Origin: Chloroflexota bacterium
Lineage (GTDB): Bacteria; Chloroflexota; Dehalococcoidia; Lucifugimonadales; GCA-002723415
Direction of reading: 5' to 3'
Length of the DNA stretch: 50,668 bases
Assembly (NCBI GenBank): GCA_002721445.1
Contig: PBKN01000002.1
Span: 2,629-53,296 of the forward strand
Below the pieces are notes generated by a model that was not told the DNA's origin, searched no databases, and was given only the letters and a program-made list of their open reading frames with translations. This document shows, piece by piece, positions 45,351 through 50,668 of this stretch (positions are counted from its first letter, which is position 1; every line of letters starts with the position of its first letter). The position numbers and the translations under genes were made by a program.

Positions 45351-45674
45351 TTACAATAAATCCTCAAGATTATCTGGCATTTCCTTTTCCCATATATTAA
45401 CTAGTATTGATTTATATATGAGTTTTTTACTAATTCTATGCCCTAATTGTTCAGGCTCTATAGGATTAACTAATTCATTTATTTTAATACATGAATTCTC
45501 TATATTAACCCTATTCAAACCAATAGCATCAAATGCATTATTAACAGATTTTTCGTTAATCCCGTCAATTAAATCCATAAAAAATTTGTCAACAATATAG
45601 CTAGCAACACCAAATCTATCACTTGTAATAATCATATCTTGGAATTTCTGTTCATCTATATCTTCAAAGCCCAT
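45351..45674 (-). CDS. Small acidic protein of unknown function
   Basis: A 107-aa acidic protein, MGFEDIDEQKFQDMI at the start, mostly helical (FGVASYIVDKFFMDLIDGINEKSVNNAFDAIG; LGHRISKKLIYKSILVNIWEKE). It is not recognised. AAGGA lies 7 nt before the ATG on the coding strand. It is the last gene of the minus-strand operon that starts with the creatininase-like gene, 52 nt after the DDN-like gene. A regulatory or accessory role is possible but not shown. Confidence 0.7.
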   Translation of the reverse strand: MGFEDIDEQKFQDMIITSDRFGVASYIVDKFFMDLIDGINEKSVNNAFDAIGLNRVNIENSCIKINELVNPIEPEQLGHRISKKLIYKSILVNIWEKEMPDNLEDLL

Positions 45675-45726
45675 ATTTAAATCCTTAAAATTTATCCAGT
45701 AGGAAATCTATCTTAGATTTAACCAT

Positions 45727-46167
45727 TCAATTTTTTTTATGTTCAGTAATAAATAAAGGAATAATTCTCTTTGTTTTATTTTGATAATCTTCATACGGAG
45801 GATAGGCTTTAACAGCTATATCCCATAGCCTTGCTCTCTCCTCTTGGTTACATATTTCTCTCGCTTTCATATAAAATATACTTTGCTTATCTTGTATTTT
45901 AATATCAGGATTATTTTTTAGATTATAATACCAAAGAGGATTTTTTGGAGCACCTCCTTGGGATGCAACAAGCACATACTTATTACCATCTAAAACTGTC
46001 ATTAGCGGAGTCTTTCTTATTGCACCAGTTTTAATACCTATATGCGTAACTATTATTACTGGCAAGCCAGACATTGTAATCCCTTTAGTACCTCCACTAT
46101 TTTCATATAAATCAACTTGATCAGCAACATATTTTTTTGGACTTGGAATATACTTTTCAATATTCAT
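45727..46167 (-). CDS. DDN-like deazaflavin (F420)-type nitroreductase-family protein
   Basis: A 146-aa split-barrel protein of the deazaflavin-dependent nitroreductase family. The defining run THIGIKTGAIRKTPLMTVLDGNKYVLVASQGGAPKNPLWYYNLKNNP is present at about 41-88 (GxxTGxxRxTPL, then VASQGGAPxNPxWxxNL). Members in Actinobacteria and Chloroflexota use reduced F420 to reduce quinones, nitro compounds or lactone-type enoates. There is no F420 synthesis gene in the window. It is downstream of the lactonase-like gene by 19 nt. GGAG precedes the ATG. Confidence 0.9.
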   Translation of the reverse strand: MNIEKYIPSPKKYVADQVDLYENSGGTKGITMSGLPVIIVTHIGIKTGAIRKTPLMTVLDGNKYVLVASQGGAPKNPLWYYNLKNNPDIKIQDKQSIFYMKAREICNQEERARLWDIAVKAYPPYEDYQNKTKRIIPLFITEHKKN

Positions 46168-46186
46168 ATTTTAACTCCAATAATAT

Positions 46187-47212
46187 CTAAATAAATTTTA
46201 TGTGTTGTGGAACAGGAACACTTAAGTTGAAACCAGTATATATTAGTTTTCCAGTTGTATAATCTCTAATAAAACAAGTAATATTATTTGATAATTCATT
46301 TGCAATTAAAATATATTTACCTGTCGGATCTATAGCAAAGCTACGTGGAATCTCACCATGAACATCGGTGTTTTCTATATAAATAAGTTTCCCATTTTCC
46401 TCATGAATTCTAAATACAGCTATAGAATTATGACCTCTGTTTGAAGCATAAATAAATTGCCCTTTAGTATGAATATCTGCTGCCCAATTAGTTCCAGAAT
46501 AATTGCTTGGAACTGTAGAGATTATTTGATTTTCTGTTATATTTCCCGACCTATTATCAACACTTAAAGATGAAATAGTTGAATTTAATTCATTGATAAC
46601 ATATGCATAATATTTATTATAAAAAATTAAATGCCTAGGCCCTGATCCTGGTTTTAATTTTTTATAATATGGACTAGCTGGTGAAATACTTTTTTCATCA
46701 GAATTAATTGAATATATCATAATCTTATCTGTTCCTAGATCAGCAACATAAACAAATTTAGAATATTTATCAGGCACAATGGAATGAGGATGAGAAGATT
46801 CTTGACGAACTTTATTCTGACTAGACCCTTCATAAACAAAAGAATCCGCAATATTCATAATTCCATCTTTTATCTGGATTACTAAACAATTAGAACTATT
46901 ATAATTAGCTACAAATAATAAATTATTATTTGTAGTAATACTTATATAACAAGGTATTAACCCATTCAACGGCTTACTATCTACCAATGAAATACTCTTA
47001 TCATCTTGATTAATAAAATATGAATAAATTTTATTATTAGATGTACTAACTGCATACAAATATTCATCTTTAGAATCAGTTGTAATAAATGAAATATATT
47101 CTTTATTGTCGACGTTTTTTAATAAAGAGAGTTCCCCGGATGACATATCTAAGTCAGCTAAATATATACCTCCTTTAAATCTATCAGTAGTTGAAGCTAT
47201 ATAAAATTTCAA
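46187..47212 (-). CDS. Lactonase-family seven-bladed beta-propeller (YbhE/6-phosphogluconolactonase type)
   Basis: A 341-aa propeller of the lactonase (Lactonase_7-bladed) family. It begins MKFYIASTTDRFKGGIYLADLD and carries repeated family phrases, such as SHPHSIVPDKYSKFVYVADLGTDKIMIY, SGPRHLIFYNKYYAYVINELNSTI and IDPTGKYILIANELSNNITCFI. Family enzymes hydrolyse sugar lactones such as 6-phosphogluconolactone. The start codon is TTG at 47212, one base after the SDR stop, so translation is coupled. No signal peptide, so cytoplasmic. It may open a lactone made by the SDR encoded just before; that link is inferred from position. Confidence 0.88.
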   Translation of the reverse strand: MKFYIASTTDRFKGGIYLADLDMSSGELSLLKNVDNKEYISFITTDSKDEYLYAVSTSNNKIYSYFINQDDKSISLVDSKPLNGLIPCYISITTNNNLLFVANYNSSNCLVIQIKDGIMNIADSFVYEGSSQNKVRQESSHPHSIVPDKYSKFVYVADLGTDKIMIYSINSDEKSISPASPYYKKLKPGSGPRHLIFYNKYYAYVINELNSTISSLSVDNRSGNITENQIISTVPSNYSGTNWAADIHTKGQFIYASNRGHNSIAVFRIHEENGKLIYIENTDVHGEIPRSFAIDPTGKYILIANELSNNITCFIRDYTTGKLIYTGFNLSVPVPQHIKFI

Positions 47213-47213
47213 A

Positions 47214-48005
47214 TCAAATTTGCTCCATATCGGGTACAGGAAAACGAGTTAATAAACCACCATCAACAGTAATCGTTTGACCATTTATATAATTCCCAAC
47301 TGAAGAACATAATGCTGCAGTAAGATCAGAAATATTATCAGGTATTCCACCAATACCGATAGGTATATATGCTTTAGCTTCATCTGCATAACCTTCACCA
47401 GCCCTTAAATACTCTTCATCTTCTCTCAGAGGCCTTGAATCTATATAACCTGGAGCAATAGCATTGCAAATAATATTATATTTCCCTAATTCTTTTGCCA
47501 TGCTCATAGTCATACGGTTAATTCCTGCTTTACAAATACCATATACAGTATTATTGTCTGCAGCAACTAATGAATGAATACTTGAAATACTAATTATTCT
47601 GCCATTAGTTTTTCTCTTAATCATTTCATGGGCTACTTTCTGACTGCAAAACAAATAGCCTTTAAGTGCATTTCCAACTTCAAATTCCCAATCTTTTTCA
47701 GTAATATCTAGAAAAGGTTTTTTGATAGATGAAACTGCGTTATTAATTAATATATCTATATGACCATGTTCAACTAAAAAATTATCAATCATTCTGTCTG
47801 TCTCAGATTTAGAAGAGATATCTGCTTTATGCCATGAAACATTAACACCATATTTTTCTAATATATCCATCGTCTCATTTGCAAACTTATCTTTAATAAT
47901 GTCATTAACTCCAATATTACATCCCTGAGAAGCTAATTTGATTGCTATAGACCTTCCAATTCCTTGCTTTGAACCTGTAATCAATGCATTCTTACCTTTT
48001 AACAA
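47214..48005 (-). CDS. Short-chain dehydrogenase/reductase
   Basis: A 263-aa classical SDR. The NAD(P) loop is LITGSKQGIGRSI (about 8-20), NNAVSS replaces NNAG, the catalytic Ser is in ISISSIHSLVAADNN and the Tyr/Lys pair is YGICK (about 161-165). The C-terminal NGQTITVDGGLLTRFPVPDMEQI is fully formed. The start is TTG at 48005 with a very strong AAGGAGGA ribosome site. It lies between the creatininase-like gene (11-nt gap) and the lactonase gene (1-nt gap), as expected for oxidation of a sugar or polyol to a lactone. The substrate is not defined by sequence. Confidence 0.9.
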   Translation of the reverse strand: MLKGKNALITGSKQGIGRSIAIKLASQGCNIGVNDIIKDKFANETMDILEKYGVNVSWHKADISSKSETDRMIDNFLVEHGHIDILINNAVSSIKKPFLDITEKDWEFEVGNALKGYLFCSQKVAHEMIKRKTNGRIISISSIHSLVAADNNTVYGICKAGINRMTMSMAKELGKYNIICNAIAPGYIDSRPLREDEEYLRAGEGYADEAKAYIPIGIGGIPDNISDLTAALCSSVGNYINGQTITVDGGLLTRFPVPDMEQI

Positions 48006-48016
48006 TAATTTCCTCC

Positions 48017-48811
48017 TTATAAATTTTGATTTTTATTTGAAAAAAGCATCTCATTAATAGAATTCACAACCCCATTTATTGACTTGATTGCTAATTTTTT
48101 CCCTTTATCCGAAGATGATTTCTGTATACCAATTTCATTTGAAGATTGTAGTTTGTCTAGCCTCACAATATTAGGTAATGCATACAATGCTAAAGAAGTT
48201 TCAAATTCACCTGCATGACCAGGATATTCTTTTGTTTCAAGAATTGAATTAATCATTTGTTCAGGGATAAAATCCCAATAACTATTAAATCTAATATCTA
48301 TTTCATTTTTTTCATTATCTAAAACTGCGTCAATGTATTCAGAATGATTATTTATAACTTTTTTATTAAATAATTCTATTGATGAATTTTGAGTAGCAAT
48401 TAAATTCAATTTCCATTGTTCAAAAATACCATTAATTGGAGAAATGTTGCCTCCGTGCCCATTTAACAATAATATTTTTTTAACACCATGCCGCAATAAA
48501 CTTTCAAGAACGTCGAATATTGATGAAAGAAAACTACCTGGCTTAGCACTAACTGTGCCAGGAAAATACATATGATGTTCAGCTATACCAAATGTCACGG
48601 GTGAAGTTATTAAAACATTAGGATATAACTCTTCTGCAGCTTTCTCAGCTATAAACCTACTCATATCTATATCCATACTCATTGATAAATGATTTAAATG
48701 TTGCTCAATACTTCCTATAGGAACAATAGCGCTTTTAAAATGACCCAAATTTTGTTGATCTAAAAATTCTTCTCTTGTTAATGATTGCAGTTGGAATAAT
48801 TTTATATCCAT
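48017..48811 (-). CDS. Creatininase-family amidohydrolase
   Basis: A 264-aa amidohydrolase of the creatininase/MftE/FAPy-deformylase family. Metal motifs are PIGSIEQHLNHLSMSMDID (about 31-49, usual form PxGSxEQHGPHLPxxTD), the glycine-rich NGHGGNIS (about 117-124) and the HAGEFETSLAL motif (about 199-209) carrying the acidic ligand. Relatives open creatinine, remove formyl groups, or act on mycofactocin peptides. It is the first gene of the minus-strand operon and faces the aminotransferase gene across 114 nt. No mycofactocin genes are seen, so an amide or cyclic-amide substrate is more likely. Confidence 0.88.
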   Translation of the reverse strand: MDIKLFQLQSLTREEFLDQQNLGHFKSAIVPIGSIEQHLNHLSMSMDIDMSRFIAEKAAEELYPNVLITSPVTFGIAEHHMYFPGTVSAKPGSFLSSIFDVLESLLRHGVKKILLLNGHGGNISPINGIFEQWKLNLIATQNSSIELFNKKVINNHSEYIDAVLDNEKNEIDIRFNSYWDFIPEQMINSILETKEYPGHAGEFETSLALYALPNIVRLDKLQSSNEIGIQKSSSDKGKKLAIKSINGVVNSINEMLFSNKNQNL

Positions 48812-48858
48812 GATTACACCTTTACAAAGATTCTTAACATATTAAAATAATTTCTTGT

Positions 48859-48887
48859 TTGACAATTACTTAGTTCCTATGTATCTT
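48859..48887 (+). promoter_or_regulatory. Candidate sigma70 promoter for the GSAM-like gene
   Basis: Perfect TTGACA (48859-48864), 17-nt spacer and TATCTT (48882-48887), 39 nt before the ATG at 48926, in the divergent gap shared with the creatininase-like operon. Confidence 0.55.
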
Positions 48888-48925
48888 ATGCCAAACAAGA
48901 ACAAATTTAAAGAAAAGATATTCTA

Positions 48926-50245
48926 ATGAGTGAAATAATAAAAAAATACAGTCAAAAATATAAAAAATCTGAAGAGTTTTTCACCAAAGGTGGAGGAATA
49001 ATAGCTGGCAGCGGTCATGAATCTAGACCTCAAAAACCTTTTCCCATTTTTGTAGAAAATGCAAAAGGTTCGATTAAATTCGACGTAGACGGTAACAGAA
49101 TTATTGACTATCAAATGGGTTTTGGATCTTTACTCTTAGGCCATTCCCACCCTGCAGTGATGGAAAAAGTAGCTAAAAGACTAGAACAAGGCACACATTT
49201 AGGTGCATTAAGTGAATTAGAATTGATTTGGGGCACTAAAGTAAAAAACTTGATACCAAGTGCTGAGTTAGTCAGATTCACAGCATCAGGATCAGAGTCT
49301 ACTCTTTTAGCAATGAGACTTGCTAGAGCTTTTACTGGGAAAAAAAAGATTATAAAATTTAAACAACATTATCATGGATGGCATGATTATGTTGTACCAG
49401 AATCAGGATTAAATACAGATTTTGGGGTTCCAGAAGAGACAACCGGGACAATTACTGTTCTTGAACCTGAAATAAAAATTTTTAAAAAATATCTAGAAGA
49501 CAACACAGATGTAGCAGGTGTGATTTTTGAAGCTACTGGCGCTCATTGGGGACAGCTTCCTCTAAAAAATCCTGAATTTATGCAAAATTTAAGAGATTTA
49601 ACAACTAAGCACAATATAGTTATGATTATGGATGAAGTTATATGTGGATTTAGGGTATCTGAAGGAGGTGCACAAAAAAAATATGGAGTATTGCCTGATT
49701 TAACTACTATGGCAAAAATTGTTGCAGGAGGATTACCTGGAGGTGCTGTTGCAGGAAAAGAAGAAATAATGTCTTTATTAAACGAAGGAACTCATTATAA
49801 AAATATGTATCATCCTGGTACATTTAACGGAAATCCAGTTTCAGCAACTGCAGGCATTGAAGCATTAAATATAATATCAAATGAACCAATCAATGAAAAA
49901 GCTGATGCCAACGCAAATAAATTGAGAATAGGCTTAAAGGAAGTATTAGATAAAATGGAAGTTAAAGGACATGTACATGGAATTTCATCTATTGTACATA
50001 TAGCTTTAGGTGTGGAAGGAGAATATTTAAATGAAATATCACAAGTACCACATTCAGAACTAGAGGAAGCTACTTCGGGTAATTTACCAAGGATGATAAA
50101 ATTAGCATTTTTAAATGAAGGGATAGATATAATGGGAGGTATAGGGTTTATGCTGTCTTCAGAGCATACTGATGATGATATAAATCAAACTTTATACGGA
50201 TTCCAAAATGTATTATCTGCATTACGCTCAGATAGAATAATTTAA
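48926..50245 (+). CDS. Class III aminotransferase, glutamate-1-semialdehyde aminomutase-like
   Basis: A 439-aa fold-type I class III PLP enzyme. It has the GSAM-like GGGIIAGSGHESRPQKPFPIFV start, GFGSLLLGHSHPAV, VRFTASGSESTLLAMRLARAF (about 116-136), YHGWHDYV, the PLP aspartate in IMDEVICGFR (D236) and the lysine in TMAKIVAGGLPGGAVAG (K264). True HemL is usually part of a haem cluster; here the gene stands next to a phosphotriesterase-like gene and opposite a catabolic operon, so a GSAM-type transaminase or racemase acting on an amine substrate is as likely as haem synthesis. It is followed 20 nt later by the truncated gene. Confidence 0.85.
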   Translation: MSEIIKKYSQKYKKSEEFFTKGGGIIAGSGHESRPQKPFPIFVENAKGSIKFDVDGNRIIDYQMGFGSLLLGHSHPAVMEKVAKRLEQGTHLGALSELELIWGTKVKNLIPSAELVRFTASGSESTLLAMRLARAFTGKKKIIKFKQHYHGWHDYVVPESGLNTDFGVPEETTGTITVLEPEIKIFKKYLEDNTDVAGVIFEATGAHWGQLPLKNPEFMQNLRDLTTKHNIVMIMDEVICGFRVSEGGAQKKYGVLPDLTTMAKIVAGGLPGGAVAGKEEIMSLLNEGTHYKNMYHPGTFNGNPVSATAGIEALNIISNEPINEKADANANKLRIGLKEVLDKMEVKGHVHGISSIVHIALGVEGEYLNEISQVPHSELEEATSGNLPRMIKLAFLNEGIDIMGGIGFMLSSEHTDDDINQTLYGFQNVLSALRSDRII

Positions 50246-50265
50246 AAATACATGAGAGTAAAAAA

Positions 50266-50668
50266 ATGAATATTTCAGGTAAAGTAATGACTGTTAAAGG
50301 GGCAATAGATCCTTCTGATTTGAAAAAGACTATTACTCATGAACATTTTTTTATAGATTTAAGAAAAAGTCACCTACCACATCAACCTTCAGTCTATACA
50401 AAAAACATATTAAACCTAGCTGATGAAGATGTTTTATTTCCAAAAATAACTAGTTTTCCTTCAGAGTCAACAGAAGTAGATTTTCCTGCTACAGAGTTAA
50501 ATTTGTGGAATGCAAAAGTTGATTTTGGAAATTTGCACTTAGCTAAAGACAGAGCTTCCATAGCAGATAATTATATTCTTTCAGATGTGAATTTAGCAAT
50601 AAAAGAAGCTTTAGAGTTTAAAAATAATGGTGGAAGCACTGTTGTAGATGTAACGAATAGAGGACTTA
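50266..50668 (+). CDS. Phosphotriesterase-family protein, 3'-truncated by window end
   Basis: The first 134 codons of an amidohydrolase-superfamily enzyme. VMTVKGAIDPSDLKKTITHEHFFID (about 7-31) is the phosphotriesterase-family start, with the metal-binding His pair of the HxH motif in THEHF, and NNGGSTVVDVTNRG (about 120-133) is the typical second strand. The ATG has GAGAG upstream. Family members hydrolyse lactones, esters or phosphotriesters; in bacteria most are lactonases. It lies 20 nt after the GSAM-like gene in the same direction. The remaining His, carboxylated Lys and Asp ligands lie beyond the window. Confidence 0.85.
   Translation, partial: MNISGKVMTVKGAIDPSDLKKTITHEHFFIDLRKSHLPHQPSVYTKNILNLADEDVLFPKITSFPSESTEVDFPATELNLWNAKVDFGNLHLAKDRASIADNYILSDVNLAIKEALEFKNNGGSTVVDVTNRGL

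What the first reader, a model, noticed from the sequence alone, without database searches (positions are those of the whole stretch)
45351..50668. Divergent catabolic cluster: creatininase-like, SDR, lactonase, DDN-like / aminotransferase, phosphotriesterase-like
Minus-strand genes from 48811 are tightly packed (gaps 11, 1, 19 and 52 nt), and the plus-strand pair faces them over 114 nt. Amide opening, dehydrogenation, lactone hydrolysis, transamination and a second lactonase/esterase form a logical route for an amide- or lactone-bearing compound, with an F420-type reductase in addition. I do not know this combination as a described pathway.
Basis: inference. Interest (0 to 1): 0.6.

Follow-up and report, generated by a model that had tools for sequence, protein, structure and literature searches.

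The report
Unconserved SAR202-type sugar catabolism gene cluster
Seven tightly packed metabolic genes at the end of a contig from an ocean SAR202-type bacterium are correctly identified, but relatives scatter them around their genomes, so they are a local set of ordinary breakdown genes and not a new conserved pathway.

Summary
The gene calls and spacing in the finding are correct. The minus-strand unit is creatininase-family, SDR, 7-bladed lactonase, DDN-type F420 reductase and a 107-aa orphan. Facing it is a class-III aminotransferase followed by a phosphotriesterase-family gene cut off by the contig end. The single-pathway reading is not supported. In the 250 held genomes of the order, the closest homologues of the creatininase, lactonase, aminotransferase and PTE-like genes lie on different contigs or far apart on one chromosome. 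No two gene families of the set recur together around them. SDR and DDN were checked only inside fetched neighbourhoods. The aminotransferase is not HemL: it lacks the HemL loop and C-terminal motif, falls in a separate supported clade, and the genome has neither HemA nor a HemL above cut-off. The PTE-like protein is judged from a full-length paralogue: it has the bridging-Glu metal site of PTER/PHP but not PTER's substrate residues. The creatininase-like protein lacks one creatininase metal ligand. Best reading: an SDR plus lactonase step for a sugar or sugar acid, assembled in this lineage from expanded SAR202-type families, beside a separately transcribed aminotransferase/hydrolase pair. 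Interest is low. Side finding: a recently duplicated, mosaic PTE gene family breaks the assembly.

The parts
48017..48811 (-). creatininase-family metal-dependent amidohydrolase, not creatininase proper; first gene of the minus-strand unit
   Evidence: PF02633 141 bits; TIGR04448 creatininase 88 bits against cut-off 235; HYEN motif of creatininase replaced by HGGN
47214..48005 (-). classical SDR oxidoreductase, sugar/gluconate dehydrogenase-like; TGxxxGIG, NNA and YxxxK motifs present
   Evidence: PF13561 162 bits; similar to KduD, gluconate 5-DH, glucose 1-DH and FabG models but below every cut-off shown; motifs read from the translation
46187..47212 (-). 7-bladed beta-propeller lactonase (YbhE/6-phosphogluconolactonase type)
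   Evidence: PF10282 322 bits; nearest solved chains are uncharacterised or putative 6-phosphogluconolactonases; 54% relative in G042
45727..46167 (-). DDN-type F420H2-dependent quinone/nitro reductase
   Evidence: PF04075 140 bits; TIGR00026 101 bits over its cut-off; nearest solved chains are DDN relatives
45351..45674 (-). 107-aa ORF of unknown family, last gene of the unit
   Evidence: no Pfam or NCBIfam match; no homologue among the ORFs of the loci compared
48812..48925 (.). 114-nt divergent promoter region; TTGACA-17-TATCTT on the + strand, with an 11-nt inverted repeat (CTTGTTTGACA / TGCCAAACAAG) overlapping the -35 box and lying just after the -10 box
   Evidence: consensus matches only
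48926..50245 (+). class-III aminotransferase of a GSAM-like, non-HemL clade; nearest solved relative is D-phenylglycine aminotransferase
50266..50668 (+). phosphotriesterase-family metal hydrolase, 5' part only (134 aa), cut by the contig end; mosaic with the copy on contig C11
   Evidence: PF02126; mosaic alignment

Best explanation
Two divergently transcribed catabolic units put together in this lineage from expanded SAR202-type enzyme families. In the minus unit the SDR oxidises a sugar or sugar acid to a lactone or keto acid, and the adjacent 7-bladed lactonase hydrolyses the lactone. The creatininase-family protein removes an amide or ring-nitrogen group from a related substrate, and the DDN-type protein is an accessory F420H2 reductase. 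In the plus unit the GSAM-like aminotransferase transaminates an amino acid or aldehyde/keto acid and is not the haem enzyme. The PTE-family protein is a two-metal hydrolase of an amide or lactone. Shown here: families, most metal ligands, the non-HemL identity and the lack of conserved neighbourhood. Inferred: co-transcription, substrates and reaction order.
For: Tight packing. SDR motifs intact and similarity to sugar dehydrogenases. The 54% lactonase relative in G042 sits among same-strand genes for a second gluconolactonase (SGL), a DHDPS-family aldolase and a SelA-like PLP enzyme, i.e. sugar-acid catabolism. The aminotransferase orthologue in G041 (67%) lies 28 nt downstream of an enolase-superfamily gene, and G040 (65%) has the same arrangement. 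Six PTER metal ligands are conserved in the full-length C11 PTE paralogue. CofD is present for F420. SAR202 group I cells respond to sugar lactones and acids, with SDR paralogues in the proposed pathway (PMC10444878).
Against: None of the neighbouring families recurs beside these genes in relatives, so nothing independent of packing ties the SDR to the lactonase. No expression data. The SDR is below every specific NCBIfam cut-off shown.
Confidence: 0.5

Rival explanations
1. A single linear pathway: amide opening, dehydrogenation, lactone hydrolysis, transamination and a second hydrolysis of one amide- or lactone-bearing compound, with the F420 reductase added.
For: Packing and divergent promoter region; a second island on C5 (about 306.7-315.4 kb) also carries a DDN-type gene overlapping an SDR, a GSAM-like gene and a PTE gene within about 9 kb.
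Against: Best homologues of creatininase, lactonase, aminotransferase and PTE are dispersed in other genomes: in the 3.0-Mb contig of G018 they lie at 2.57, 0.77, 1.47 and 0.51 Mb. No shared neighbour families. The C5 DDN is only 33% identical.
Confidence: 0.13
2. Mere neighbourhood: individually acquired catabolic genes packed in a gene-dense genome, with no shared substrate at all.
For: No conserved linkage of any pair tested. Creatininase-family orthologues sit beside luciferase-like monooxygenases, a CMD-family gene or an arginase-family gene in different relatives. PTE and GSAM-like genes are many in this genome.
Against: Intergenic gaps of 1-19 nt among four same-strand genes make co-transcription likely.
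Confidence: 0.35
3. The aminotransferase is the haem enzyme HemL (GSAM).
For: Best NCBIfam model is the GSAM subfamily PRK00062, 306 bits against cut-off 398.
Against: 293 bits against the hemL cut-off of 527, while 135 of 250 genomes in the order carry a HemL above cut-off. The HemL gating-loop and PSxFE motifs are absent, and it falls in a separate clade with support 0.999. No HemA in the genome.
Confidence: 0.01

Closest known systems
SAR202 parallel non-phosphorylative sugar/lactone/sugar-acid pathways (PMC10444878)
   Same: SDR dehydrogenase paralogues and lactone hydrolysis in marine Chloroflexota
   Different: The lactonase here is PF10282, whereas the paper lists COG3618; no enolase-superfamily dehydratase lies in the block; the GSAM-like and PTE families are not named in that paper's main text
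D-phenylglycine aminotransferase (PDB 2cy8, 6g1f)
   Same: Nearest solved relative of the aminotransferase over residues 28-437, 250 bits; same short region after the YHG motif and an FLS..H-type C-terminus in place of the HemL PSxFE motif
   Different: Substrate pocket not tested; sequence divergence too large to transfer substrate
PTER, N-acetyltaurine / N-acetyl-beta-alanine hydrolase (PDB 9efa; PMC11374699, PMC13311154)
   Same: In the C11 full-length paralogue: HxH, bridging Glu, two His and Asp metal ligands all kept
   Different: Substrate residues R204, R233 and H300 become G, W and C, so not an N-acetyltaurine hydrolase by this test
Creatininase of Pseudomonas putida (PDB 1q3k, 1j2t)
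   Same: EQH and D of the metal site, the following His, and the HGGxFETS-type motif
   Different: HYEN becomes HGGN, the Trp before the HGG motif is missing, and it is far below the creatininase model cut-off
DDN, deazaflavin-dependent nitroreductase (PDB 3r5z, 7kl8, 3r5l)
   Same: Full-length match, up to 140 bits
   Different: Substrate unknown

Membership tests
HemL (glutamate-1-semialdehyde aminomutase) | score over TIGR00713 cut-off (527.3 bits) | tested here: not met
   293 bits
HemL (glutamate-1-semialdehyde aminomutase) | gating-loop GSGxxT/SxGxPxSxG segment and PSxFE C-terminal motif | tested here: not met
   absent in the window protein and its 11 orthologues, present in 8 of 8 HemL from the order, with variants at single positions
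HemL (glutamate-1-semialdehyde aminomutase) | C5 pathway partner HemA in the genome | tested here: not met
   only short hits of at most 30 bits against cut-off 209.6 in a 99% complete genome
class-III PLP aminotransferase | fold-family match and PLP lysine motif | tested here: met
   PF00202 191 bits; AKIVAGG lysine motif
creatininase (EC 3.5.2.10) | equivalog cut-off 235 bits | tested here: not met
   87.9 bits
creatininase (EC 3.5.2.10) | full metal-ligand set including the Glu of HYEN (ligand assignment from established knowledge) | tested here: not met
   Glu replaced by Gly in HGGN
creatininase superfamily PF02633 | Pfam gathering score | tested here: met
   141 bits against 31.3
PTE superfamily PF02126 | Pfam gathering score and metal ligands | tested here: inconclusive
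   26.1 bits against 22.4 on a 134-aa fragment that includes only the HxH ligands; all six ligands present in the C11 paralogue, which is 77% identical over the shared part
PTER-type N-acetyl amino acid hydrolase | substrate residues R204, R233, H300 | tested here: not met
   G, W and C in the C11 paralogue
F420H2-dependent quinone reductase family | family match and F420 biosynthesis in the genome | tested here: met
   PF04075 140 bits; CofD hits of 346 and 145 bits. CofD alone is not complete proof of F420 synthesis: the family also matched control genomes not known as F420 users, such as E. coli
conserved catabolic operon | gene order kept in related genomes | tested here: not met
   only 1 genome (its own) is held for its GTDB family, so very close relatives could not be checked; SDR and DDN were not searched across the order

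The most novel reading that the evidence does not exclude
A lineage-specific route, not described before, in which an SDR, a propeller lactonase, a creatininase-family amidohydrolase and an F420 reductase degrade an amide-bearing sugar acid, with the amino product handled by the divergent non-haem GSAM-like aminotransferase and a rapidly recombining PTE-family hydrolase.
Probability: 0.08. Interest if true: 0.5.

Novelty: new member of a known kind. Interest (0 to 1): 0.2.

Why it matters
It removes a candidate pathway from the list of new systems and corrects two labels (HemL, creatininase) that automatic annotation could copy. The more useful by-products are that this small Chloroflexota genome carries ten GSAM-like aminotransferases without a recognisable haem C5 pathway, and about 18 PTE-family hits with recent duplications that break the assembly. 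Both expansions could be tested for substrate range in dissolved organic matter use; neither is named in the main text of the three SAR202 papers searched.

Tried and rejected
HemL identity: rejected by score, motifs, tree and absence of HemA. PTER-like N-acetyltaurine hydrolysis by the PTE protein: rejected at substrate residues in its paralogue (the first attempt at residue numbering, used a wrong offset for the second block). Aminotransferase-PTE as a recurring pair: the two are adjacent only here; within 7 kb, 4 of 10 GSAM-like genes have a PTE against 1.2 expected, p about 0.03 without correction, too weak to claim. Inverted repeat in the divergent promoter as a shared operator: among 178 loci found only in the loci covering this same place; half-sites in the window no more frequent than chance. 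A paper search for the creatininase ligands gave nothing, so that assignment rests on established knowledge. A SAR202 and GSAM paper search gave nothing.

Full report
Observation. The ORFs and gaps in the finding are exact and the families are confirmed by Pfam. The window ends at the end of contig C2, so the PTE gene is cut and no further plus-strand genes can be read from this genome. The genome is a 1.71-Mb, 18-contig, 99% complete assembly in the same order as SAR202 MAGs: contig lengths of G040, G041 and G143 equal those of PBID01000007, VFGW01000009 and VFGY01000030. It is the only genome held in its own family.

Conservation. I searched the 250 held genomes of the order with the creatininase, lactonase, PTE and aminotransferase proteins, fetched neighbourhoods of the best homologues and compared every neighbouring ORF. 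Creatininase-family orthologues (62-64%) in TB39, TB36 and SP301 have none of the other genes beside them. In the near-closed genome G018 the four best homologues lie about 0.26 to 2.1 Mb apart on one contig. The only good lactonase relative (54%, G042) sits in a sugar-acid neighbourhood with a second gluconolactonase, a DHDPS-family aldolase and a SelA-like gene. No set of neighbours recurs. A partly similar island on C5 (DDN overlapping SDR, near a GSAM-like and a PTE gene) exists in the same genome, but its DDN is only 33% identical.

Aminotransferase. Ten GSAM-like genes are present. None reaches the HemL cut-off; the best is 381 against 527 bits, although 135 of 250 genomes in the order have a clear HemL. 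HemA is missing. In a tree with eight HemL of the order, the window protein groups with orthologues from 11 genomes in its own clade (support 0.999) and lacks the HemL loop and PSxFE motif. The nearest solved structure is D-phenylglycine aminotransferase. It is therefore a non-haem aminotransferase; its substrate is unknown. In G041 and G040 its closest orthologues follow an enolase-superfamily gene (annotated in G041, same layout in G040).

Hydrolases. The creatininase-family protein is far below the creatininase model, and the second His-motif is HGGN instead of HYEN. The full-length PTE paralogue on C11 (77% to the window fragment) keeps all six metal ligands of PTER, including the bridging Glu, but not PTER's substrate residues. 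The PTE name therefore predicts a two-metal hydrolase and does not decide between amide and lactone. Part of this is inferred across from the paralogue, because the window copy is truncated.

Mechanism. The best-supported step is SDR plus lactonase: their genes are 1 nt apart, the SDR resembles sugar dehydrogenases, and SAR202 cells grow better on sugar lactones and acids with SDR paralogues in the proposed route (PMC10444878). Everything beyond that is inference. F420 use is plausible since CofD is present, although CofD hits also occur in control genomes such as E. coli.

Side finding. The genome has 18 PTE-family hits. Six contig ends lie in PTE genes and several share long identical tracts with other copies; a 2.1-kb stretch at the start of C2, with a PTE gene, is 97% identical to a place on C14. 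The window PTE and the C11 PTE are mosaic: about 80 nt identical, a diverged middle, then 108 nt identical up to the contig end. The longest run exceeds all 500 codon shuffles, mean 35 nt. Recent duplication with gene conversion is the simplest reading, but a chimeric or strain-mixed assembly is not excluded.

Noticed in passing
G000 contig ends: C1 start, C2 end (window 50266-50668), C10 end, C11 end, C12 start, C18 start: About 18 PTE-family hits in 1.71 Mb; contig breaks fall inside PTE genes that share identical tracts (180, 80 and 108 nt) with other copies, suggesting recent duplication or gene conversion, or assembly mixing.
   Followed up: partly
G000 whole genome: Ten GSAM-like aminotransferases but no HemA and no HemL above cut-off; near relatives such as G040, G041, G025 and G143 also have no HemL over cut-off.
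   Followed up: partly
L132 4743-17236 (G000:C5:306742-319235): A second catabolic island with a DDN gene overlapping an SDR, a tRNA-editing-domain gene, a GSAM-like gene, an MFS transporter, a zinc dehydrogenase, PTE, an HpcH aldolase, an amidohydrolase and another class-III aminotransferase.
   Followed up: partly
window 48854-48899: Inverted repeat CTTGTTTGACA / TGCCAAACAAG spanning a TTGACA-17-TATCTT match in the divergent promoter region; possible operator.
   Followed up: partly
L002 685-1755; L146 10870-12063; L147 8547-9704; L003 10795-11346: Creatininase-family orthologues sit beside an arginase-family gene, luciferase-like monooxygenases or a CMD-family gene in different SAR202-type genomes.
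   Followed up: no
G000:C2:1-2074 and C14 (L166:7475-9549): Recent 2.1-kb duplication, 97% identical, holding a 216-aa ORF and a PTE gene.
   Followed up: no
G000 C8, last 1.5 kb (L167): Imperfect internal repeats with 68-79% identity at the contig end.
   Followed up: no
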